Shown here: in pieces, positions 16,149 to 63,912 of the stretch
How positions within the stretch are numbered: the stretch's first letter is position 1
Layout: each line of letters begins with the position of its first letter
NCBI RefSeq assembly: GCF_900112415.1
Contig: NZ_FOLV01000013.1
Span: forward strand, 1 to 64,000
DNA: 64,000 bases
Direction: 5' to 3'
DNA from: Bacillus sp. 491mf
Lineage (GTDB): Bacteria; Bacillota; Bacilli; Bacillales; Bacillaceae_G
Translations under genes and position numbers: made by a program
The notes under the pieces: model-generated
Database searches by the model: none
What the model saw: only the letters and a program-made list of their open reading frames with translations
Told to the model about the DNA's origin: nothing

Positions 16149-16258
16149 ATGATTATAAATTCTACGGCAAACGGATACCTGTTTATCCTATCGCGTAATG
16201 TTTATTATACGATATCTTCGTTTTGGAAGCAATTACTTCTTATGTCATAATTACTGAA

Positions 16259-16293
16259 TAACAGCCCACATCACGTAACGATGTGGGCTGCCA
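16259..16293 (-). terminator. Hairpin after the KimA-like gene
   Basis: CAGCCCACATC and GATGTGGGCTG form a perfect 11-base stem with a short loop; the following T-run is weak (TTATT), so termination efficiency is uncertain. Confidence 0.5.
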
Positions 16294-16307
16294 ATCATGA
16301 AACGATA

Positions 16308-18221
16308 TTATTTCTGCAAATGATATGGAACCGTTGTAATTACAATATCTTTATTGCGCATAAACCACATGCGTAATAGAAGCGCACTTTGGTTATGCAA
16401 CGCATGATGCCACCATTTGTGCGGAATAAACTGCGGAATAATAATATGAATGTGTCCCCCACCCTTTTGTTTCGCTTCTATCGTTTTAATAAGGCGATTC
16501 AGCGGTTCAAGTATAGACCGATATTTACTGCGAAGAACTACCAGTCTACAAGGAGTTCCCCATTCTTTCCACTTTGTCTCCATTTTATTTATAGATGCAG
16601 CATCGAAACCAACATATACAGCAATCGGATCCACATCTACACTTTTCGCAAAGGATATCGTGTTGTTCACAACACGATGAACGCCTGACACTAAAACGAG
16701 TGTGACTATATCGCTTGCTTCTGGACGTATCGTTTGCATATCGATGCGCAGTTCTTTCGCAACATCTTCATAATGCTTGTGAATGGACATTGAGATGAAA
16801 ATAAAAATCGGCAAGACAACTAATACAACCCAGGCGCCGCCCGTAAATTTTGTAACAGCAAAAATAACGGCAACGATTGATGTAATCACAGCACCAACTG
16901 TATTAATTGTAAACTTAACTTTCCAGTTTGATCCTTTCACTCGCTTCCAGCGGCGCATCAAACCAATTTGCGCTACTGTAAACGAAAGGAACACACCGAT
17001 CGCATAAAGCGGAATTAACGCATTCGTATGCGCATGAAACGCTATAATCAAAATACATGCTAGTGATGCTAACGCAATAATTCCATTCGAATATCCTAAG
17101 CGGTCTCCGCGATTTGTTAAGCTTCGAGGCAAAAATCCGTCTGCTGCTACAATCGCAGCAAGCTGAGAAAATCCTGTAAATGTAGAGTTTGCTGCTAAAA
17201 TTAACACAATGAACGTAAACCATATAATGACTTGATATAAAATTCCATGTCCAAAATACATGCCAGCTAACTGTGACAACATCGTGTTATGTGGGTCTGG
17301 CGTAATACCTTTCGCATACAGATGAAACGAAAATCCTAACAGTGTCACAGCTGTGATCGAACCTAAAGCAATATACGTTCTAATTGCGTTTTTTTGCTGT
17401 GGTTCTCTAAAAATAGGAACTGCATTTGAAATCGTCTCAATTCCTGTAAGGGCTGAACAAGCTGAACTGAACGCTTTCAAAACTAGTAAAGTTGTTAAGC
17501 CCTCTGGAACTGTTCCAAAGCTCGGTGTACTTGGTTGAATAAACCCGTGACGAAGTTCATCAAAAAAGCCCGTAAAAATTAAAGTTAACATACAAATCAT
17601 AAACCCGAATGTCGGCCAAGCAAATACGCGAGCTGATTCTGCTACTCCGCGTAAGTTTACAAGCACTAAAAGAACGACGCATAAAATAGCCAAAATCGTT
17701 TCATAAGGAGCGACTACAGGATACGCTGAAGAAACAGCTTCCATCGCCGCAGATACGGATACAGCTACGGTCAACACATAATCAACAAGCAAAGAACTAG
17801 AGGCAACAAGAGAAACCCAGCGTGGCTTGAAGTTATCCTTCGCAATAGCATACGCTCCCCCGCCGTTTGGATATGCCAAAATCCCCATAATATACGAGAC
17901 AATCAATATTGCCAAAAGAACGATAGTAGAAATGGTAATCGGTAAAATTAACCATTTCGCATCAGGGCCAAGTCCTACAAGCTCTGTCATTCCTGATTCA
18001 GGTCCATATGCAACAGATGAATACAAATCCGCTGAAAGGATCGGCAGCGCGATTAACCAAAATAACTTGTTATGTTGCGCATGAAGCTCTGACGTTGACA
18101 TAGGACGACCAATTAAAAAGCGCTTCACACTACTGAAATTACTTGCAGAAAACCAAATTGCAATTAATGCGAAAATAATTAACATCGCTTCCAACCATCT
18201 AATTAAAGTATGATGATCCAT
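16308..18221 (-). CDS. KimA-like potassium transporter / APC superfamily permease
   Basis: The 637-residue protein has about 12 membrane helices (30-480) and a soluble C-terminal domain of about 150 residues. Long stretches look like B. subtilis KimA (formerly YdaO), a proton-coupled potassium importer: KRFLIGRPM near the N-terminus, SADLYSSVAYGPE, YPNGGGAYAIAKDN, LLVDYVLTVAVSVSA and AFSSACSALTGIETISNA. The C-terminal part (TLVLVSGVHRVVNNTISFAK) resembles a universal-stress-protein fold, as in KimA. The match is from memory, so KimA family is likely, and the exact substrate is inference. AAGGAG precedes the ATG. The gene stands alone. Confidence 0.75.
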   Translation of the reverse strand: MDHHTLIRWLEAMLIIFALIAIWFSASNFSSVKRFLIGRPMSTSELHAQHNKLFWLIALPILSADLYSSVAYGPESGMTELVGLGPDAKWLILPITISTIVLLAILIVSYIMGILAYPNGGGAYAIAKDNFKPRWVSLVASSSLLVDYVLTVAVSVSAAMEAVSSAYPVVAPYETILAILCVVLLVLVNLRGVAESARVFAWPTFGFMICMLTLIFTGFFDELRHGFIQPSTPSFGTVPEGLTTLLVLKAFSSACSALTGIETISNAVPIFREPQQKNAIRTYIALGSITAVTLLGFSFHLYAKGITPDPHNTMLSQLAGMYFGHGILYQVIIWFTFIVLILAANSTFTGFSQLAAIVAADGFLPRSLTNRGDRLGYSNGIIALASLACILIIAFHAHTNALIPLYAIGVFLSFTVAQIGLMRRWKRVKGSNWKVKFTINTVGAVITSIVAVIFAVTKFTGGAWVVLVVLPIFIFISMSIHKHYEDVAKELRIDMQTIRPEASDIVTLVLVSGVHRVVNNTISFAKSVDVDPIAVYVGFDAASINKMETKWKEWGTPCRLVVLRSKYRSILEPLNRLIKTIEAKQKGGGHIHIIIPQFIPHKWWHHALHNQSALLLRMWFMRNKDIVITTVPYHLQK

Positions 18222-22818: not shown

Positions 22819-23400
22819 ATGAATTTAATTCCTACAGTTATTGAACAAACAAATCGCGGGGAACGTGCTTACGATATTTACTCTCGTCTATTAAAGGACC
22901 GCATCATCATGCTAGGTAGCGCAATTGATGACAACGTAGCAAACTCAATCGTTTCTCAGCTTTTATTCTTAGAATCACAAGACCCAGAAAAGGATATTCA
23001 TATATACATCAACAGTCCTGGTGGATCTATTACAGCTGGTATGGCAATTTACGATACAATGCAATTCATTAAACCAAACGTATCTACAATTTGTATCGGT
23101 ATGGCTGCATCTATGGGTGCTTTCTTACTTGCAGCTGGTGAAAAAGGAAAACGTTTCGCTCTTCCAAACAGTGAAGTTATGATTCACCAACCACTTGGCG
23201 GCGCACAAGGACAAGCGACAGAAATCGAAATCGCTGCAAAACGTATCCTATTCTTACGTGATAAACTAAACAAAATTCTTGCTGAGCGTACAGGTCAAGA
23301 CTTAGAAGTAATCGAGCGCGACACAGAACGCGACAACTTCATGACAGCAGAAAAAGCGCTAGAATACGGCTTAATCGATAAAATCTTTACAAATCGCTAA
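22819..23400 (+). CDS. clpP: ATP-dependent Clp protease proteolytic subunit
   Basis: ClpP forms the tetradecameric peptidase chamber used by ClpX, ClpC and ClpE for protein quality control, competence and sporulation. The 193-residue product has the full triad: Ser98 in GMAASMGAF, His123 in MIHQPLGG and Asp172 in [17 protein letters not shown] precedes the ATG. It is monocistronic, with a CtsR-controlled promoter and its own terminator, and stands convergent to crh. Confidence 0.98.
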
Positions 23401-23405
23401 TCGCT

Positions 23406-23442
23406 TATAGAAAAGAGCTATCATTCCTGATAGCTCTTTTTC
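23406..23442 (+). terminator. Terminator of clpP
   Basis: AAAAGAGCTATCA, loop, TGATAGCTCTTTTT. Confidence 0.9.
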
Positions 23443-23445
23443 ATT

Positions 23446-23500
23446 TATCAGCGACTCGGCACAATTTATCGGCGACTCGACACGATTTAAAGACCCCTCG
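23446..23500. repeat. Short imperfect tandem repeat
   Basis: ATCAGCGACTCGGCACAATT is followed at once by ATCGGCGACTCGACACGATT, two roughly 21-base units; a weaker third copy (CCCTCGACCACATTCGACAC) follows. It is between the two convergent terminators. Confidence 0.5.
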
Positions 23501-23535
23501 ACCACATTCGACACGCGGCGAGTAGCCCAGCCACA

Positions 23536-23574
23536 ATAAAAAGCTATCGCACATTCGCGATAGCTTTTTATTGT
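23536..23574 (-). terminator. Terminator after crh
   Basis: AAAAAGCTATCGC and GCGATAGCTTTTT form a perfect stem with A and T runs on both sides, so it can work in both directions. Confidence 0.9.
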
Positions 23575-23825
23575 TCTTTTTGTACATAAGCAACAAGTGC
23601 TGCTAATGCTTCTGTCTCATCTGATCCTTCTGTCGTAATTGTAACTTCACATCCAGATCCAACAGCTAAGCTCATAATCCCCATAATACTTTTAGCATTG
23701 ACCGTTTTCCCGTCTTTTTCCATAAAAATATCAGCTTGAAAACGATTTGCCTCTTGTACAAACAACGCCGCCGGACGTGCTTGTAATCCAGTCTTCAACC
23801 GTACCTCTACCAGTTTTTGAACCAC
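23568..23825 (-). CDS. crh: Catabolite repression HPr-like protein Crh
   Basis: Crh is an HPr paralogue that, once phosphorylated by HprK on Ser46, acts as a CcpA corepressor; it cannot take part in sugar uptake. The 85-residue product has Gln15 in place of the HPr catalytic His (GLQARPAA) and keeps Ser46 (NAKSIMG), which defines Crh. Its partner kinase gene hprK is at 32926-33855. It is the last gene of the yvcI-rapZ-yvcK-whiA-crh series. Confidence 0.95.
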   Translation of the reverse strand: MVQKLVEVRLKTGLQARPAALFVQEANRFQADIFMEKDGKTVNAKSIMGIMSLAVGSGCEVTITTEGSDETEALAALVAYVQKEQ

Positions 23826-45940: not shown

Positions 45941-46108
45941 TTTTCACCACTCCAATAACTATCTTGTAATATGCATGTTCGCTCTACCTTCATTATAAGA
46001 GCATTTTAATCATAAGTTTAATATCAATATACTATCTCAATCATCAAGAAAACTTATGATAAAATGAAAAGAAAAGCGGAGGCGGAGCTGGACAAAAAAA
46101 CGAAAGGA

Positions 46109-47011
46109 ATGATTCTCATCAACACCGACATTTTAAAAATTTTTGTAACAGTCGTAGAACAAAAACATTTTTCAAGAGCTGCTGAAATGTTGAACCTTTC
46201 CCAGCCAGGTGTAAGTATGCACATTCGCAATTTAGAAAATGAATTTGGTACAACGCTCATTCAGCGCTCACCAAAACACGTCCAAGTCACAGAAGCGGGA
46301 AACATTTTATACATACATGCAAAACAAATGCTGACACTGTACGAAGAAGCAAAACAAGAAATTAATGAACTTCATAATATCGTTACGGGAACACTGCGCA
46401 TTGGCGCTAGTTTTACAATCGGAGAATACCTTCTTCCGAAAATATTAGCAAACTATGCAAAGGAACATCCACGCGTTGAAGTTCATACCTTTATCTCGAA
46501 TACAGAAGAGGTATTACAGGGTGTTCGCTCGAATCAGCTAGATATTGGCTTAGTAGAAGGACAAGTCATCTACACAGATGTAGACGTAGAATCATTTATG
46601 GAGGATGAAATGAAGCTTGTCGTTCCGCCAAATCATCCTCTGACGATGACAAACCCGATTCAGACAAACATGCTACAAGATCAAGTATGGGTGCTCCGCG
46701 AAACCGGTTCAGGAACGAGAGCTTACAGCGACCGTTTTATTCACGACCATCATTTAAAAATGAAGCGTTACTTCACATTTAGCAGCATTCAAAGTGTAAA
46801 AGAAGCCGTTGCTGCCGGACTTGGCATTGCCATTCTATCAGACTGGACAGTGCGTAAAGAGTTGCAAGCTGGCGAAGTATGTCACATCCCTGTGCCAAAC
46901 GAAAAGCTCATGCGCCCTTTCTCCATTGTACGGGGAAAATATTTTATTCCTTCTAAAGCGATTCAAGTCTTTTTAGATCATGTGCAAAACTTTGCGAATC
47001 AACATCGTTGA
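46109..47011 (+). CDS. LysR-family transcriptional regulator
   Basis: The N-terminal HTH (FVTVVEQKHFSRAAEMLNLS, then QPGVSMHIRNLENEFG) is followed by an LTTR effector domain (about 90-295, with TGTLRIGASFTIGEYLLP). It resembles CysL/YeiE-type regulators and probably controls the divergent sulfate-exporter-like gene. The start is uncertain: ATG at 46109 has AAAGGA directly before it; an ATG at 46064 gives 315 residues without a good RBS. Confidence 0.85.
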   Translation: MILINTDILKIFVTVVEQKHFSRAAEMLNLSQPGVSMHIRNLENEFGTTLIQRSPKHVQVTEAGNILYIHAKQMLTLYEEAKQEINELHNIVTGTLRIGASFTIGEYLLPKILANYAKEHPRVEVHTFISNTEEVLQGVRSNQLDIGLVEGQVIYTDVDVESFMEDEMKLVVPPNHPLTMTNPIQTNMLQDQVWVLRETGSGTRAYSDRFIHDHHLKMKRYFTFSSIQSVKEAVAAGLGIAILSDWTVRKELQAGEVCHIPVPNEKLMRPFSIVRGKYFIPSKAIQVFLDHVQNFANQHR

Positions 47012-47061
47012 CCTTTACACTAGTGTCAGGGTTTAAAATGTGAGATGAAGGAGTGATAGAT

Positions 47062-47421
47062 TTGCGCATCGGAGAATTATCGAAACATACAGGCGTAAGC
47101 GAACGGTCACTACGGCATTACGAAGATAAAGGCTTACTGACTTCAAAACGACTTGCAAATGGCTATCGTGATTTTGATGAAACGACCATTGAGCAAGTAA
47201 AGCTTATTCAAATGTATTTACAACTTGGGCTAAATTTAGAAGAAACCGCTAGAATGCTGCGCTGTTTAGAAGTAGAGCCACACTTATACGATAACCCGTG
47301 CAGCAGTATCATCACACTTTACGAGGATAAGCTTGCGGAAGTAAAAAAGCAGATTTCGTTACTTTCTCATATCGAAGCGAATTTACAAAAACACATTACG
47401 TTGCTAAAAGAAAGGAATTGA
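47062..47421 (+). CDS. MerR-family transcriptional regulator
   Basis: The 119-residue protein is a MerR winged helix (RIGELSKHTGVSERSLRHYE, DKGLLTSKRLANGYRDF) plus a coiled coil with Cys residues (MLRCLEVE, DNPCSSI) that could sense metals or redox. The start is TTG at 47062 behind AAGGAG. The reductase gene begins six bases later, so it is the likely target and operon partner. Confidence 0.88.
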   Translation: MRIGELSKHTGVSERSLRHYEDKGLLTSKRLANGYRDFDETTIEQVKLIQMYLQLGLNLEETARMLRCLEVEPHLYDNPCSSIITLYEDKLAEVKKQISLLSHIEANLQKHITLLKERN

Positions 47422-47427
47422 TATACG

Positions 47428-47964
47428 ATGTTCGTTTTACACGGCAGTTCACGTCCAAATGGGAATACAGAACAATTAACGCATATGTTGTTAGAAGGCG
47501 TCCAAACTGAAGAAGTATATTTACGTAATCATACTATCAAGCCCATTACAGATCAGCGTCACGATGCAGAGGGCTTTCAACCAATTGATGATGATTACGA
47601 AGGTATCATTAAGCGGATGCTTGAACATGATACCATTGTCTTTGCAACGCCGCTTTATTGGTACGGTATGAGCGGATATATGAAAAATGTTGTCGATCGC
47701 TGGTCGCAAAGCTTACGAGATGCTTCCCTTCACTTTAAAGAGCGGATGCAAGATAAAAAAGTATATGTTGTCATTGTCGGCGGCGACAATCCGAAATTAA
47801 AAGCACTTCCACTCATCGCACAGTTTCAATACATTTTTGACTTTGTCGGCGCTTCTTTTGATGGTTATATAATTGGATCTGCCAATGCGCCAGGAGAGAT
47901 TGTGAATGATAAAGAAGCAATTGAAAAGGCTAAACTGTATAATCAAATTTTCAAGGAAAATTAA
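47428..47964 (+). CDS. NADPH-dependent FMN reductase-family oxidoreductase
   Basis: The 178-residue flavodoxin-like protein has the FMN phosphate loop LHGSSRPNGNTEQL (4-17) and the second loop FATPLYWYGMSGYMKNVVDR (about 72-91) of NAD(P)H-dependent flavin or quinone reductases. The substrate is unknown. It follows the MerR regulator in a two-gene operon. Confidence 0.88.
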   Translation: MFVLHGSSRPNGNTEQLTHMLLEGVQTEEVYLRNHTIKPITDQRHDAEGFQPIDDDYEGIIKRMLEHDTIVFATPLYWYGMSGYMKNVVDRWSQSLRDASLHFKERMQDKKVYVVIVGGDNPKLKALPLIAQFQYIFDFVGASFDGYIIGSANAPGEIVNDKEAIEKAKLYNQIFKEN

Positions 47965-47973
47965 TAGAATGAT

Positions 47974-48003
47974 TTGACAAATATACACCCAAATGCATAC
48001 AAT
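47974..48003 (+). promoter_or_regulatory. Promoter of the ABC-F gene leader
   Basis: TTGACA (47974-47979) and TACAAT (47998-48003) with an 18-base spacer; the transcript would start near 48010 and have a leader of about 230 bases. Confidence 0.75.
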
Positions 48004-48015
48004 AAAGGTGAAATT

Positions 48016-48042
48016 ATGAAAGGAAGGTACATCGGCCAATGA
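48016..48042 (+). CDS. Leader peptide 1 (MKGRYIGQ) of the ABC-F attenuator
   Basis: An eight-codon ORF follows AAGGTG at five bases. Its TGA overlaps the ATG of a second tiny ORF, MKF (48039-48050), which has its own GGAAGG upstream. Short leader ORFs at the head of an antibiotic-inducible attenuator are the sensors in known cases: drug-stalled ribosomes change the RNA fold. Confidence 0.6.
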   Translation: MKGRYIGQ

Positions 48043-48046
48043 AGTT

Positions 48047-48242
48047 CTAATTCTCTTTTTATTCATCCATCACAAATAGTGAAACAAAATGATGAAAACT
48101 AGAAGAGGATTAGTATGCCCTTTTGTCGATAACTTTCTTTTGACAGGAACATGTAAAAATACATGTACAGTTTTTTGTGCATCTCTTTTTACATATTACG
48201 GGTGAAATATGTCCTCTCTAGTGAAACTAGGGAGGTTTTTTT
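48047..48242 (+). promoter_or_regulatory. Transcription attenuator of the ABC-F gene
   Basis: The segments are: A 48047-48057 (CTAATTCTCTT), B 48099-48113 (CTAGAAGAGGATTAG), C 48213-48221 (CCTCTCTAG), D 48227-48235 (CTAGGGAGG). A pairs with the right part of B; the left part of B pairs with C (nine pairs, one bulge); C pairs with D to form a terminator stem with seven T after it. D also contains the RBS of the ABC-F gene. A small hairpin (48149-48166, ACATGTA/TACATGT, then T6) lies in between. Confidence 0.75.
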
Positions 48243-49880
48243 ATGACTATTTTAACAGCACGAAACATTGAAAAAAGCTTTGGTGACCGCACTTTATTTA
48301 CGTTACAAGCGCTTGATATCCATGCGCACGATCGCATTGGAATCGTCGGTGTAAACGGCGCCGGGAAATCAACGCTATTACAAATATTAAGTAAAGAAAT
48401 CGAACCTGATGAAGGAACGATTACTCATTACGGTTCGATCGCCATCATTCCACAGTTCCATGAGGAGACATTAGAAACAGCCTCTTCTCTTGCAAAAGGA
48501 CAATGGGGAATTTCTCACATCACAACGAATATGAGCGGTGGCGAACGCGGGCGTTTAAAAATTGCTCACGCCCTTGAACAAGAAGCAGCTATCTTATTTG
48601 CTGATGAACCGACAAGTCATATCGATATGCATGGCACAGAACAACTAGAACGGGCATTACAATCTTATAGAGGAGCGATTATTTTAATTTCTCATGACCG
48701 CGCCTTATTAGATGCCATTTGCACAAAGATAATCGAAATTGAAGACGGTACCGTTCGGGAGTATAAAGGAAATTACACAAACTATCGGGAGCAAAAGAAG
48801 CTGCAAAGACAGCACCAGCAAGCGGAATATGAAAAATATACGAAAGAAAAACAGCGCTTAGAAACGGCAATCGCCAGTAGACAACAGCGGGCTTCTGGTA
48901 TGACAAAAATCCCAACGCGCTTTTCTTCTTATGAATCTTGTCTATACAAATCCGGAGCAGCTTATAGCCAAGGTAACGTTCAAAAAGCCGCAAAAGCACT
49001 AGAAACAAGATTAGAGCAATTAGAAAAGAAAGAAAAACCAAAAGAAATTGCGCATACAAAATTTGATATACAATACCATGCACCCATTCATAGTAAAACG
49101 GCCCTGCAATTAAATAAAGTTACGAAAAAAATTGGCAGCCGCACCCTCTTTCACAACATAAATGGAAGTATAACTCCAGGTGCAAAACTTGCGATTCTCG
49201 GAAAAAACGGAAGTGGAAAAACAACGCTATTTCATCTGATTCAAGCAAAGGAACGAGGAATTCAGCTTTCAAAAAGCTGTAAAATTGGTTACTTTGAACA
49301 AACATTAGCCATTTTACAAAACGACAAAACCATTTTACAAAACGTAACGGAAAAAACACGTTATGACGAATCTTTCGTACGAACAATTCTTGCGCGCCTC
49401 TTATTTCGAAGAGAAGATGTTTATAAACGAGTAAACGTATTAAGCGGCGGCGAACGTGTAAAGGTCGCACTAGCGAAAATATTCTTAGGAGACTACAATC
49501 TGCTTCTTCTTGATGAACCGACAAACTATTTAGACCTTGCTACGCAAGAAGAACTAGAGCACATGCTGAAAGATTATCCTGGTACTGTGTTGTTCATTAG
49601 TCATGACCGCACCTTCATTCATAAAATTGCTGATCATATTTTACACCTAGATGAGAACGAACCGCGGATCTTTCAAGGAAATTACGAGCAGTATACGAAA
49701 CGAACTGAACAATCTTCTATCAATCCAGCAGAGCAAGAACTACTGCGTCTGCAAACAAAATTAACAGAAGTAATTGGACGCATTTCGATGCCAGGGCGTC
49801 ACGATGATGTGATTGTTCTGGAAAGTGAATACGAGCAATTACTGCGTGAAATTAAAGAATGCAAAAAAGCTGTCCTCTGA
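48243..49880 (+). CDS. ABC-F family ribosomal protection protein
   Basis: The 545-residue protein has two ABC ATPase domains without membrane parts: Walker A GVNGAGKS (36-43) with MSGGERGRLK and ADEPTSHID, then GKNGSGKT (about 320) with LSGGERVKVAL and LDEPTNYLD. Between them is a charged linker (about 185-275) that reaches the ribosome in antibiotic-resistance ABC-Fs such as VmlR, MsrA and LsaA, which remove lincosamides, streptogramins, macrolides or pleuromutilins. The drug spectrum cannot be read from sequence. The attenuator upstream supports an antibiotic-inducible role rather than housekeeping. Confidence 0.9.
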   Translation: MTILTARNIEKSFGDRTLFTLQALDIHAHDRIGIVGVNGAGKSTLLQILSKEIEPDEGTITHYGSIAIIPQFHEETLETASSLAKGQWGISHITTNMSGGERGRLKIAHALEQEAAILFADEPTSHIDMHGTEQLERALQSYRGAIILISHDRALLDAICTKIIEIEDGTVREYKGNYTNYREQKKLQRQHQQAEYEKYTKEKQRLETAIASRQQRASGMTKIPTRFSSYESCLYKSGAAYSQGNVQKAAKALETRLEQLEKKEKPKEIAHTKFDIQYHAPIHSKTALQLNKVTKKIGSRTLFHNINGSITPGAKLAILGKNGSGKTTLFHLIQAKERGIQLSKSCKIGYFEQTLAILQNDKTILQNVTEKTRYDESFVRTILARLLFRREDVYKRVNVLSGGERVKVALAKIFLGDYNLLLLDEPTNYLDLATQEELEHMLKDYPGTVLFISHDRTFIHKIADHILHLDENEPRIFQGNYEQYTKRTEQSSINPAEQELLRLQTKLTEVIGRISMPGRHDDVIVLESEYEQLLREIKECKKAVL

Positions 49881-49913
49881 TATATCGGCGCTTCGACAAT
49901 ATTAGACACACTA

Positions 49914-49946
49914 AAGAGGGCTGACCCAAGTCAGCCCCGTTTTTTC
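49914..49946 (+). terminator. Terminator of the ABC-F gene
   Basis: GGGCTGACCCAAGTCAGCCC followed by GTTTTTT. Confidence 0.9.
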
Positions 49947-49948
49947 GA

Positions 49949-50656
49949 TTAAAATTTATTCCAAGTTAACACATCATCAAGTGGAAGACGAACTTTTTCA
50001 AATCCAGCCTGCACTGCTTTCCCTACACAAATTAACATAACAGGTTCAAGATTTTCCGGAACACGGAAAGCTTCTACAAATTTCTGCGGATGGAAGCCAC
50101 CGATTGGTACAGTATCAAAACCTTTTGCTTTTGCCGCTAACATAAGCTGCATCGCTACTAAACCACCATCAATCATCGCCACGCGAGTAGCTTGTTCATT
50201 AGAGAATTTCCCGTAGTTTTCAACAATCGAATTAACATAGAAACTCTTCGTTTCCTCTGTCATTCTTCCTTTTTTCACTACTTCTCCGTAAATTTTCTCC
50301 GCATTTTTATAGGCCTGTTTATCTCCTAAAACAGCAATGACAATAGATGCATCGACAATTTGTTTTTGATTGTTTGCGATTGGCAATAACTCTTCTTTCG
50401 CTGCTTCATCTTGCACAACAAGAAATCTCCATGATTGCAAGTTTGACGATGACGGAGCTAAAGTTGCGAGCTCTAAAATTTCACGAATATCTTTTTCATC
50501 CATTTTAAAATGCGGATCATAATGACGTACAGATTGGCGCTCCTTAGCAATAGTAAAGAAATCTGTGTCCTTAATTTCTTTTGGAGCTTCCGTATGAGTA
50601 TTAAGCTCATGGATTTTATTCAAATACTCTTCTGCTGCAGACTTTTTTGCTGACAT
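49949..50656 (-). CDS. Nitroreductase-family protein
   Basis: The 235-residue flavoprotein has the nitroreductase start ERQSVRHYDPHFKMDEKDI (about 34-52), the FMN contacts LAPSSSNLQSWRFLVV (about 66-81) and the end PVMLICVGKA. Relatives reduce nitro compounds or quinones with NAD(P)H. The gene is behind a promoter with two inverted-repeat operators (50674-50732), so it is tightly regulated, likely by an electrophile- or oxidant-sensing repressor. The regulator is not obvious. Confidence 0.88.
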   Translation of the reverse strand: MSAKKSAAEEYLNKIHELNTHTEAPKEIKDTDFFTIAKERQSVRHYDPHFKMDEKDIREILELATLAPSSSNLQSWRFLVVQDEAAKEELLPIANNQKQIVDASIVIAVLGDKQAYKNAEKIYGEVVKKGRMTEETKSFYVNSIVENYGKFSNEQATRVAMIDGGLVAMQLMLAAKAKGFDTVPIGGFHPQKFVEAFRVPENLEPVMLICVGKAVQAGFEKVRLPLDDVLTWNKF

Positions 50657-50673
50657 GGTTTTTCTCCCCTTTA

Positions 50674-50732
50674 ACTGTTCTAAATTTAAGAACAGTATAT
50701 CCCCCTAACTGTTCTTTTGTCAAGAACAGTTA
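50674..50732 (-). promoter_or_regulatory. Promoter and twin operators of the nitroreductase gene
   Basis: Two inverted repeats share the arm AACTGTTCT: 50706-50716 with 50722-50732 (11 of 11 pairs, TAACTGTTCTT/AAGAACAGTTA, loop of five) and 50674-50681 with 50689-50696 (eight pairs). On the minus strand TTGACA is in the loop and right arm of the first, and TATACT is at the edge of the second, 18 bases apart. Confidence 0.8.
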
Positions 50733-50771
50733 ATCGTAAAAAATAAAACGAAAACTACAGTTCCGTTTTAT

Positions 50772-50922
50772 CCCGCTACTTTAGGGCAGTAAAGCTCCCA
50801 CCTCGAGATTATGAAAAAACAAAGAAGATAGGTGGGAGATAACTGCCCGTAAGAGCCCGATTGGGTGGGCTTTCCATCAGTGGGGATAAAGAAAAACCCC
50901 CACTGATGGAAGTTTCACTTTA
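50772..50922 (-). repeat. Dispersed repeat family 2 copy
   Basis: On the minus strand it begins TAAAGTGAAACTTCCATCAG, one base after the Rrf2 gene stop, and ends in CCCTAAAGTAGCGGG. Inner arms CTCCCACCT and AGGTGGGAG pair at the top of the hairpin. Confidence 0.8.
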
Positions 50923-50923
50923 T

Positions 50924-51340
50924 TTATTCTTTAGGAAGTAAATCAGCTAGCTTTTTCTTTGCCAGCCCCTCTACAAGCCATCTTTCCATTTCATCTCTTA
51001 ATTCATATAACGCTGAACATGTTGAAGGAGAAAAACACTCTTTCCCATCTACATCAAGGAATCCTTTTGAATACGGATCTGCTCTTATCGCATCATACAC
51101 TTCTACTAATGTAATTTCATTTGCTGCTCTAGCTAAATAATAACCGCCATCTCGTCCTTCTTTCGCTACAATGAGTTCTGCTTTCACTAAATGAGTAAGG
51201 ATTTTTCTTAAAAAGAGCGGCTTTGTCCCTAACTTTTCAGCCATAATTGCACTAGGACAAATACCCTCATAATCCGCTAGTACCAATAAAGATTGCACAG
51301 CAAGTCCGAACCATTTCGTACTTGAAACCTTCTCTTTCAT
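50924..51340 (-). CDS. Rrf2-family transcriptional regulator
   Basis: The 138-residue protein has the Rrf2 winged helix (AVQSLLVLADYEGICPSAIM, then AEKLGTKPLFLRKILTHL; about 14-52) and the wing GRDGGYYLAR. Two Cys in GKECFSPSTCSAL (about 100-110) may sense redox or bind a cofactor; the three-Cys FeS pattern of IscR/NsrR is not complete. It resembles YwnA/SaiR-type regulators. Its targets are not evident. Confidence 0.88.
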   Translation of the reverse strand: MKEKVSSTKWFGLAVQSLLVLADYEGICPSAIMAEKLGTKPLFLRKILTHLVKAELIVAKEGRDGGYYLARAANEITLVEVYDAIRADPYSKGFLDVDGKECFSPSTCSALYELRDEMERWLVEGLAKKKLADLLPKE

Positions 51341-51402
51341 TCGTTCTCACCCCTCTATTAGTCTAAACGATTTCGCTGAAAAGACAACTTAAAGTCCATA
51401 TA

Positions 51403-51437
51403 AAAAGAACCCTTCCTCCAGTTGAGAAAGGGTTCAC
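51403..51437 (-). terminator. Terminator of the UPF0145 gene
   Basis: GAACCCTTTCTC, loop, GGAAGGGTTCTTTTT on the minus strand. Confidence 0.85.
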
Positions 51438-51449
51438 AAAATCATTCTC

Positions 51450-51764
51450 TTATCGAACTTTAACTGCCGTTCCGCTTACAGCTACCATCAGCATTCCTTC
51501 GCGAACGACTTCATAATCAACATCGATACCAACAATTGCGTTTGCGCCTTTTTGCGCTGCAAGACTTTTCATTTCTTCCATCGCAATATCACGTGCTTCT
51601 TTTAATTTACTTTCATAAGCACCAGAACGACCGCCGACAATGTCACGAACAGACGCAAATAAATCACGAACGATATTTGCTCCCATAATCGCTTCACCGT
51701 TTACAATATCAATATACTCTTCAATTTCTTTTCCTTGAATAACAGAAGTTGTTGTAACGATCAT
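51450..51764 (-). CDS. UPF0145 (YbjQ) family protein
   Basis: The 104-residue protein matches the YbjQ family in length and pattern: [18 protein letters not shown], the [19 protein letters not shown] run and [14 protein letters not shown]. Family members form pentameric rings and were called heavy-metal-binding; function is unclear. AGGAGG precedes the ATG. It is monocistronic. Confidence 0.92.
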
Positions 51765-51798
51765 AATCTATTCCTCCTATGTATATAAACTTATAACC

Positions 51799-52131
51799 TT
51801 AGCTTGCGCAATGTTTTCCGTTAATATAATAAGCTGATTCTGTGAAAACCGTAAACACAACCTCTACTTCAGGAAGTCCAAAATCCATCAAATATGTAGT
51901 AATGGCCTTAGCAAATCGATCACGAGTTTCCTGTCCACGTTCAAACCATTTTACTTCAATAAGAGGAAACACCTCTATTTCTTCTCCGTTGAATATAGAT
52001 GTAGAATTCGGTAGTTCCAACGTAAAATTATCCGTACCACACTCACAAATCTCTGCGAGCTCTTCTACTAATGGTTTGCTTATACTCTTCAATTGTTCAG
52101 TGGTAACTCCACGAAATACAACATGTGGCAT
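51799..52131 (-). CDS. DUF1904 family protein
   Basis: The 110-residue protein starts MPHVVFRGVTTEQ, the family hallmark, with a 4-oxalocrotonate tautomerase-like fold expected from the N-terminal Pro2. GGAGGG precedes the ATG at 52131; the open frame upstream is not supported. Function unknown; tautomerase-like activity is only an analogy. Confidence 0.85.
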   Translation of the reverse strand: MPHVVFRGVTTEQLKSISKPLVEELAEICECGTDNFTLELPNSTSIFNGEEIEVFPLIEVKWFERGQETRDRFAKAITTYLMDFGLPEVEVVFTVFTESAYYINGKHCAS

Positions 52132-63430: not shown

Positions 63431-63470
63431 ATAAAACCTCCGTTAGCTATGCAACGGAGGTTCTCTTATG
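63431..63470 (-). terminator. Terminator of the cold-shock gene
   Basis: AACCTCCGTTGCATAGCTAA, CGGAGGTTTTATC on the minus strand. Confidence 0.85.
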
Positions 63471-63516
63471 TGAAACGCTGGTCCTTAAAGCACACCATGT
63501 TTCTCAAATAAAATGA

Positions 63517-63714
63517 TTATAACTTTACAACGTTTGCCGCTTGCGGACCACGCGCGCCGTCTACAATCTCAAATTCTACTTTTTCTCCTTCTTCTAACGA
63601 TTTGTATCCATCGTGCTGAATCGCAGAAAAATGAACGAAAACATCATCTCCACCATCGCGCTCGATAAACCCAAAACCTTTTTCTGAATTAAACCATTTT
63701 ACTTTTCCTTGCAT
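63517..63714 (-). CDS. Cold shock protein (CspA family)
   Basis: This 65-residue single-strand nucleic-acid-binding protein acts as an RNA chaperone. Both RNA-binding motifs are present: RNP1 KGFGFIE (about 12-18) and RNP2 VFVHFSAI (about 25-32). B. cereus group genomes carry several csp genes and I cannot say which paralogue this is. GAAGGGAATGG precedes the ATG, and a leader of about 45 bases follows the promoter at 63768-63796. Confidence 0.95.
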
Positions 63715-63767
63715 ACTCGTTCCATTCCCTTCAATCTTAAAATAAAGGCATATGCCCCATACTTTGA

Positions 63768-63796
63768 CTATAACGAATTAGAAAACAGAAAGTCAA
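63768..63796 (-). promoter_or_regulatory. Promoter of the cold-shock gene
   Basis: TTGACT (63791-63796) and TTATAG (63768-63773) are 17 bases apart on the minus strand. Confidence 0.65.
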
Positions 63797-63840
63797 AGAA
63801 GAGTTGTCGTCTTTTTATTGTACCTTTCGACATACTTTTT

Positions 63841-63912
63841 CCCGCTATTCGCGGGCAGATTTAAGATTGACAAAGAATCAAAGAAGATAAGTAGGGGATG
63901 CAAGTTTCACTC
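63841..63912 (-). repeat. Dispersed repeat family 2, short copy
   Basis: It begins AGTGAAACTTGCATCC after the TAG stop of the next gene and ends CTGCCCGCGAATAGCGGG; the middle is mostly missing. Confidence 0.7.

What the first reader, a model, noticed from the sequence alone, without database searches (positions are those of the whole stretch)
48010..48242. Antibiotic-sensing attenuator with two overlapping mini leader ORFs before an ABC-F gene
Seen: promoter, leader ORF MKGRYIGQ whose TGA overlaps the ATG of MKF, and four segments with mutually exclusive pairing: A:B (48047-48057 with 48103-48113), B:C (48099-48108 with 48213-48221) and C:D (terminator stem, 48213-48221 with 48227-48235, then T7). 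Unusually, the RBS of the ABC-F gene (AGGGAGG) is the 3' arm of the terminator, so the same fold blocks both transcription and translation. Known: vmlR- and msr-type genes are induced by drug-stalled ribosomes on leader ORFs. Inference: a ribosome stalled on MKGRYIGQ or MKF masks A, frees B to pair with C and opens the gene. The overlap of two tiny ORFs could let two drug classes stall at different places.
Basis: partly seen in the sequence, partly recalled or inferred. Interest (0 to 1): 0.75.

Follow-up and report, generated by a model that had tools for sequence, protein, structure and literature searches.

The report
Drug-sensing RNA switch, known type
The stretch before this antibiotic-protection gene looks like an RNA switch that lets the gene be made only when a drug jams a ribosome on a three-residue mini-gene; switches of this kind are already known in relatives.

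Summary
The anatomy is real: promoter-like site, two overlapping mini-ORFs, segments A-D with mutually exclusive pairing, and a terminator whose 3' arm is the gene's Shine-Dalgarno (SD) sequence. The three-way pairing was matched by 0 of 1500 full shuffles, but by 14 of 1500 with the terminator kept. Main correction: the sensor is most likely the tripeptide MKF alone. MKGRYIGQ starts about 6 nt from the predicted transcript start, its SD falls in the promoter, and its codons 2-4 are the SD of MKF. In an equilibrium sliding-ribosome test, footprints on MKF and on the last codon of MKGRYIGQ opened the terminator; those on its codons 1-6 did not. Five vga-type plasmid leaders (four distinct) carry MIN, MIN, MKY, MKY and MRN before the same CUAAU arm. 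SD-in-terminator is not unusual: it is published for C. difficile cplR; tripeptide uORFs are published for vmlR, cplR and Rli53/lmo0919. So: a new member of a known kind. Drug induction, termination and uORF translation were not tested. No close relative was available, so conservation of this leader is untested; the Rfam model nearest to it matches only weakly.

The parts
47974..48003 (+). Promoter-like site TTGACA-18-TACAAT; transcript start predicted near 48010
   Evidence: 11 of 12 consensus bases; 5 sites of at least 11/12 in 64 kb, both strands. Start site inferred from spacing, not measured
48019..48027 (+). SD-like AAAGGAAGG for the tripeptide uORF
   Evidence: duplex energy -10.4 kcal/mol in the 20 nt before MKF; AAAGGG or GAGAGGG stands before the tripeptide in the vga-type leaders
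48016..48042 (+). ORF MKGRYIGQ, probably not a functional sensor
   Evidence: starts about 6 nt from the predicted transcript start; transcribed SD part -1.6 kcal/mol
48039..48050 (+). Tripeptide uORF MKF, the likely drug sensor
   Evidence: equivalents MIN, MIN, MKY, MKY, MRN in five vga-type leaders; best opening position in the sliding-ribosome test
48047..48058 (+). Segment A: 5' arm of anti-antiterminator, starts at the last base of codon 3 of MKF and includes its stop codon
   Evidence: 12 of 12 pairs with B
48098..48116 (+). Segment B: 3' arm of anti-antiterminator (48102-48113) and 5' arm of antiterminator (48098-48116)
48115..48132 (+). Mini-ORF MPFCR whose SD is segment B; function doubtful
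   Evidence: SD duplex -6.6 kcal/mol; its AUG is not in the RF02452 consensus
48135..48140 (+). TTCTTT, a match to the NusG pause motif TTNTTT described for vmlR; untested
   Evidence: sequence; motif from PMC9226507 passages
48207..48222 (+). Segment C: 5' arm of terminator (48213-48221) and 3' arm of antiterminator (48207-48222)
48227..48235 (+). Segment D: 3' arm of terminator, contains the ABC-F SD AGGGAGG (48229-48235)
   Evidence: SD duplex -12.0 kcal/mol
48236..48242 (+). T7 tract of the intrinsic terminator
48243..49880 (+). ABC-F ribosome-protection gene, 545 aa; by score and identity nearest to the Vga proteins, by tree between Vga and Msr
   Evidence: NCBIfam ribo_prot_ABC_F 528.7 bits (cut-off 380), Vga_all 594.6 (cut-off 725, not reached); best solved relative 7nhl, a lincosamide-streptogramin A resistance protein; tree

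Best explanation
The 233-nt leader is a ribosome-mediated attenuator of the vga/vmlR/cplR/Rli53 kind. Without drug, ribosomes finish the tripeptide MKF quickly, A pairs with B, C is left to pair with D, and most transcripts end in the T7 tract; any that pass have their SD locked in the same stem. A drug that blocks the ribosome at or just after the start codon of MKF (pleuromutilin, lincosamide or streptogramin A by analogy) parks it over A. B then pairs with C, D is released, RNA polymerase reads through, and the ABC-F SD is free. Shown here: the sequence parts, the mutually exclusive pairings, the dependence of the modelled switch on a footprint at MKF, and the same layout in relatives. Inferred: translation of MKF, drug identity, termination, induction.
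For: Folding: free RNA to 48242 gives expected pairs A:B 11.9, C:D 9.8; with a ribosome on MKF (48010-48054 masked) B:C 10.5, C:D 0.4. Sliding footprint, transcript to 48235: B:C exceeds C:D with the P site at 48036-48048, most strongly at the AUG of MKF (B:C 10.3, C:D 1.7), which fits drugs that stop initiating ribosomes. Relatives: five vga-type leaders with tripeptides MIN, MIN, MKY, MKY, MRN, CUAAUCCU beginning at the last base of codon 3. The best promoter-like site ends 35 nt before the tripeptide here and 37-40 nt before it in those five, but scores only 8-10 of 12 there. A:B over the window, four distinct vga-type leaders and the RF02452 consensus: 1 of 12 pairs changed on both sides (C-G here, A-U in the rest), 5 on one side, 6 with a single standard pair type. 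Gene: best solved relative is a lincosamide-streptogramin A protein; 42-46% identity to five Vga proteins, 37-40% to three Msr. Published precedents: vmlR (PMC9226507), cplR (PMC10201436), Rli53 (PMC8079631).
Against: At transcript length 48225, before D is made, equilibrium folding without any ribosome already gives A:B 6.3 and B:C 5.2, and every footprint tested up to P site 48080 gives B:C, so the off state depends on A:B forming first. At 48235 a footprint at 48068, where no mini-ORF codon lies, also gives a slight edge to B:C (5.7 against 5.3). The same equilibrium test flips only 1 of 4 vga-type relatives. An automatic three-way search recovered the anchored B arm in 3 of 7 leaders. In A:B 6 of 60 cells of the five leaders are not standard pairs, two each in vga(C), Jeotgalibaca and vga(A). 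The RF02452 match is weak (26.8 bits, gathering 60, E 0.04 on 261 nt, with unrelated models at similar E), absent from the whole-window list at E up to 10, and RF02452 matches none of nine fetched plasmid loci at E up to 1. In the tree the window protein is not inside the Vga group. No close relative and no expression data were available.
Confidence: 0.87

Rival explanations
1. One reading: both MKGRYIGQ and MKF are translated and sense two drug classes, a longer peptide allowing macrolide-type stalling (it contains K-G-R).
For: The ORF and overlap exist. A. noterae has an ATG at -24 (MKGKVNIAMK, in frame with its MK uORF), and the RF02452 consensus has a weakly conserved aug before AAgg. Frames that overlap the tripeptide also occur in vga(A) and S. 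saprophyticus with GTG starts. Transcripts reading in from the upstream gene (stop at 47964, 9 nt before the -35) would carry the genomic SD (-8.5 kcal/mol). A footprint on codon 8 partly opens the switch (B:C 8.0, C:D 3.8), and at 48225 footprints on codons 1-6 favour B:C (12.1-12.5), so an early stall might act kinetically.
Against: The SD is not in transcripts from the predicted start (-1.6 kcal/mol). At 48235 footprints on codons 1-6, including K-G-R, leave C:D at 9.8. No ATG frame ends in the tripeptide's AUGA in the five vga-type leaders. The AUGA overlap follows from any codon 2 that begins with A.
Confidence: 0.06
2. The third mini-ORF MPFCR acts as a brake: its SD is segment B, so a ribosome starting there blocks B:C and restores termination, limiting induction.
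For: Well-placed SD 5-6 nt from the AUG (-6.6 kcal/mol). A footprint on its AUG gives B:C 0 and C:D 9.8.
Against: B must resemble D, which is the SD, so B is SD-like by design. The AUG is not in the RF02452 consensus; among the vga-type leaders only S. saprophyticus has an ATG at useful spacing after B, vga(A) having one with no spacing. B is paired in both end states.
Confidence: 0.07
3. A macrolide-sensing leader of the Msr/Erm type controls an Msr-like protein.
For: 5zlu ('macrolide efflux protein'; MsrE, recalled) is the second-best solved relative (351 bits); 37-40% identity to three Msr proteins, and the tree puts the window and A. noterae on the Msr side of the Vga proteins.
Against: No RLR-type or MYLIFM-like (motifs recalled) peptide in the leader. 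Msr-type loci examined differ: MQFLLFF before msr(G), and MTHFMRLRFPTLNQ upstream of the RNA methyltransferase gene that precedes msr(I). The protein lacks the 4-residue insertion seen in the linkers of the three Msr proteins, as the Vga proteins do.
Confidence: 0.05
4. A constitutive terminator or 5' UTR with chance alternative pairings, not regulated by ribosomes.
For: With the terminator kept, 14 of 1500 shuffles reach the three-way score; other windows of the 64 kb come close.
Against: The combination with promoter, tripeptide uORF, A arm beginning at its stop codon, the same layout in vga-type leaders and a compensatory pair is not explained.
Confidence: 0.04

Closest known systems
vga-type leaders (vga(A), vga(C) and Vga-family genes on plasmids of Staphylococcus and Jeotgalibaca)
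   Same: Tripeptide uORF 35-40 nt from the best -10-like site, A arm starting at its last codon and stop (CUAAU), B arm with AGGAU, C, terminator, ABC-F gene
   Different: There the terminator ends roughly 26-33 nt before the gene and does not contain its SD (ends set by eye); different third codon and loops
C. difficile cplR leader, uORF(MRI) (PMC10201436, section 20 read and passages seen)
   Same: 212-nt leader, tripeptide uORF, terminator ending at the start codon and hiding the SD, combined transcription and translation attenuation
   Different: Clostridial; sequence not fetched or compared here
B. subtilis vmlR leader, uORF(MIN) (PMC9226507, abstract and passages seen), and Rfam RF02452 ncr1575
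   Same: Anti-antiterminator, antiterminator and terminator with a tripeptide uORF; RF02452 aligns end to end with 48011-48242
   Different: RF02452 score below its gathering score; vmlR SD is partly held in a separate hairpin SL-4; the proteins are less alike (6ha8, VmlR by recall, 246 bits against 429 for 7nhl)
L. monocytogenes Rli53 / lmo0919 (PMC8079631, passages seen)
   Same: 207-nt leader transcript, three-residue ORF, lincomycin-dependent read-through into the resistance gene
   Different: Sequence not fetched here; the protein is less similar (7nhn, 314 bits)

Membership tests
Tripeptide-uORF attenuators of ABC-F genes (vga, vmlR, cplR, Rli53) | Tripeptide uORF with an SD near the 5' end of the leader | tested here: met
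   MKF 48039-48050, SD duplex -10.4 kcal/mol; translation itself not tested
Tripeptide-uORF attenuators of ABC-F genes (vga, vmlR, cplR, Rli53) | Anti-antiterminator, antiterminator and terminator that exclude each other, the first overlapping the uORF | tested here: met
   0 of 1500 full shuffles but 14 of 1500 with the terminator kept
Tripeptide-uORF attenuators of ABC-F genes (vga, vmlR, cplR, Rli53) | Covariation of the A:B helix across relatives | tested here: inconclusive
   Window, 4 vga-type leaders and one consensus: 1 of 12 pairs changed on both sides (one event, window against the rest), 5 on one side, 6 of a single type; 6 of 60 cells in the five leaders not standard; B:C and C:D not counted; too few for statistics
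Tripeptide-uORF attenuators of ABC-F genes (vga, vmlR, cplR, Rli53) | Downstream ARE ABC-F gene | tested here: met
   resistance itself not tested
Tripeptide-uORF attenuators of ABC-F genes (vga, vmlR, cplR, Rli53) | Drug-dependent stalling and read-through | not testable with these tools
   needs wet-lab or expression data
Tripeptide-uORF attenuators of ABC-F genes (vga, vmlR, cplR, Rli53) | Conservation of the leader in close relatives | tested here: inconclusive
   no close relative reached: own genome not held; genome-contig scan gave 3 distant loci; viral scan none; plasmids and phages none at DNA level
Rfam RF02452 ncr1575 | Score at or above gathering (60 bits) | tested here: not met
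   26.8 bits, full length 1-212
NCBIfam Vga family (NF000170) | Score at or above cut-off (725 bits) | tested here: not met
   594.6 bits, best-scoring model of the list
Macrolide-type (Msr/Erm) leader peptides | Longer leader peptide with a macrolide-stalling motif | tested here: not met
   no such peptide with an SD in the predicted transcript; only K-G-R in the doubtful MKGRYIGQ, where a stall does not open the switch at 48235 in the model

The most novel reading that the evidence does not exclude
The leader reads three mini-ORFs in turn: a near-leaderless MKGRYIGQ that modulates access to the MKF start, MKF as the opener, and MPFCR, whose SD is the switch strand B itself, as a built-in brake that re-closes the switch when initiation recovers. 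This would be a dose-limiting attenuator in which opener and brake compete for one RNA strand.
Probability: 0.05. Interest if true: 0.5.

Novelty: new member of a known kind. Interest (0 to 1): 0.2.

Why it matters
It gives a plausible inducible control for an ABC-F ribosome-protection gene that the protein models used here place nearest to Vga. It combines the vga-type uORF/anti-antiterminator half with the cplR-type terminator-SD half; that such leaders are assembled from exchangeable halves is a speculation worth testing. It also suggests that the Rfam 'sRNA' RF02452 is a leader of this kind.

Tried and rejected
Close relatives could not be reached: own genome not held; the genome-contig scan gave 3 distant ABC proteins; the viral scan gave none; leader DNA had no match in plasmids or phages, and 46000-52000 none in plasmids. 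Conservation was judged only on plasmid Vga loci at 42-46% protein identity. Ten loci were fetched, picked from the 40 listed rows of at least 5000 matching plasmid records and the 60 listed of 879.

This covers only the held open-access library.

Considered and set aside: a known riboswitch or T-box (no Rfam match at gathering in the leader; PyrR 26.5 bits against 54); a macrolide leader; a chance terminator; ORF 48209-48271 (SD -8.4 kcal/mol), which would start too close to the polymerase to steer termination (inference) and was not followed.

Rows dropped before counts: L036 (vga(C) plasmid cut by the record start, replaced by L042); L043 (near copy of vga(A)) left out (relatives); L037 (A. 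noterae, arms not assigned) left out; Msr loci L039-L041 not scored for the switch.

Full report
What is there. The stretch 47974-48243 holds a promoter-like site TTGACA-18-TACAAT (11 of 12 consensus bases; five sites this good in 64 kb on both strands), a leader of about 233 nt, and an ABC-F gene at 48243-49880.

Is it more than chance? 48010-48260 folds with z = -4.6, 1 of 200 shuffles folding as well. A score that asks for A:B, B:C and C:D together was reached by 0 of 300 and 0 of 1500 full shuffles. Two stricter controls are less kind: keeping the terminator and shuffling the rest, 14 of 1500 reach it; and of 2126 overlapping real windows of the 64 kb this one is first, but only just (11.0, then 10.6 and 10.2). 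The pairing alone does not settle the matter; the combination with the uORF and the relatives does more.

Which mini-ORF is the sensor? The predicted transcript start is near 48010 (spacing from the -10, inferred). MKGRYIGQ then has a 5' UTR of about 6 nt and its genomic SD lies in the promoter; the transcribed part pairs with the anti-SD at -1.6 kcal/mol, against -10.4 for the 20 nt before MKF, whose AAAGGAAGG is codons 2-4 of MKGRYIGQ. A 31-nt ribosome footprint was slid along the leader with the transcript ending at 48235. The antiterminator exceeds the terminator with the P site at 48036-48048, best at the start codon of MKF (B:C 10.3, C:D 1.7); codons 2, 3 and stop of MKF give B:C 7.8-9.2. 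Codons 1-6 of MKGRYIGQ leave the terminator at 9.8 pairs, codon 7 at 9.2, and codon 8 opens it partly (B:C 8.0, C:D 3.8). One place without a mini-ORF codon, 48068, gives a near tie (5.7 against 5.3). At 48225, before D exists, every footprint tested up to 48080 gives B:C, so the test separates the ORFs only once D is made. Retapamulin and lincomycin are reported to stall initiating ribosomes in the vmlR study (PMC9226507, passages).

Relatives. On plasmids, vga(A), a vga(A) near copy from S. pettenkoferi, vga(C), and Vga-family genes of S. saprophyticus and Jeotgalibaca porci have tripeptides MIN, MIN, MKY, MRN and MKY; in each CUAAUCCU begins at the last base of codon 3, with a B arm and a terminator downstream. 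The best promoter-like site ends 35 nt before the tripeptide here and 37-40 nt before it there, with scores of 8-10 of 12 there. No ATG frame within 60 nt ends in the tripeptide's AUGA in these five; S. saprophyticus has an ATG at -54 in frame with MRN, above its predicted start, and GTG frames overlap the tripeptide in vga(A) and S. saprophyticus. In A:B, over the window, four distinct vga-type leaders and the RF02452 consensus, 6 of 12 pairs keep a single standard type, 5 change on one side and 1 on both (C-G here, A-U in the others); 6 of 60 cells in the five leaders are not standard pairs, two each in vga(C), Jeotgalibaca and vga(A). Acetoanaerobium noterae has MK*, an in-frame ATG at -24, and, like the window, a terminator whose 3' arm is the SD. 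The three Msr-type loci look different: MQFLLFF before msr(G), and MTHFMRLRFPTLNQ upstream of an RNA methyltransferase gene that precedes msr(I) in P. megaterium; no leader peptide was assigned for the P. filamentosa locus.

Rfam. RF02452 (ncr1575, 'Bacillus sRNA') aligns from 48011 to 48242 over its full 212 positions but at 26.8 bits against a gathering score of 60 (E 0.04 on 261 nt, with PyrR at 0.07 and a microRNA model at 0.06). It is not listed in the whole window at E up to 10, and it matches none of the nine fetched plasmid loci at E up to 1. Its consensus carries AUGAUUAACUAA, i.e. MIN. It also carries GCUAUUU and UUAUUU, the two motifs mutated in the vmlR leader study, so RF02452 is probably the vmlR leader. 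That is inference: of 14 control genomes it rings only in B. subtilis, and its position there was not checked.

Protein. NCBIfam ribo_prot_ABC_F passes its cut-off (528.7 against 380 bits); Vga_all is the best-scoring model but below its cut-off (594.6 against 725). Solved relatives rank 7nhl (lincosamide-streptogramin A protein) 429 bits, 5zlu ('macrolide efflux protein') 351, 7nhn (Lmo0919) 314, 6ha8 (ExpZ; VmlR by recall) 246. Identity is 42-46% to the five Vga proteins, 41% to A. noterae and 37-40% to three Msr proteins; in an unrooted ten-protein tree the window groups with A. noterae (support 0.96), on the branch between Vga and Msr. A pleuromutilin-lincosamide-streptogramin A spectrum is therefore likely, not shown.

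Weak points. Equilibrium folding at 48225 without a ribosome has A:B and B:C nearly level (6.3 against 5.2), so the off state relies on A:B forming first. The equilibrium ribosome test flips only 1 of 4 vga-type relatives, S. saprophyticus, and an automatic search found the anchored B arm in 3 of 7 leaders.

What it is called. It works like the published tripeptide-uORF attenuators: vmlR (PMC9226507: abstract and passages), cplR (PMC10201436: section 20 and passages), Rli53/lmo0919 (PMC8079631: passages). I call it a new member of a known kind.

Noticed in passing
Rfam RF02452 against window 48011-48242: The Rfam 'Bacillus sRNA ncr1575' consensus encodes a tripeptide MIN with similar hairpins and holds the two motifs mutated in the vmlR leader study; it is probably the vmlR leader rather than a free sRNA.
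   Followed up: partly
L044 1375-1419 and following (P. megaterium plasmid NZ_CP120607.1): Leader peptide MTHFMRLRFPTLNQ upstream of an RNA methyltransferase gene followed by an msr(I)-like gene; the stretch after it shares GGAUUAGUCUG with the RF02452 B arm and matches that model at 30.6 bits, below its cut-off.
   Followed up: partly
L040 569-592: MQFLLFF mini-ORF with an SD-like stretch before msr(G) of Exiguobacterium, resembling the MsrD leader peptide (recalled).
   Followed up: no
L037 420-700: A. noterae ABC-F leader: MK* uORF, an in-frame ATG at -24, and a terminator whose 3' arm is the SD, as in the window.
   Followed up: partly
window 16181-16480 (-), 23341-23580 (+), 23381-23620 (-): Other places with three mutually exclusive helices before a terminator-like stem, nearly as strong as the finding.
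   Followed up: no
window 63467-63859 (-): Sub-threshold match to the cspA thermoregulator (51.3 bits, gathering 78, E 4e-10), perhaps a cold-shock gene leader.
   Followed up: no
window 48209-48271: A 20-codon ORF (MSSLVKLGRFF...) with an SD runs through the terminator and overlaps the ABC-F start in another frame.
   Followed up: no
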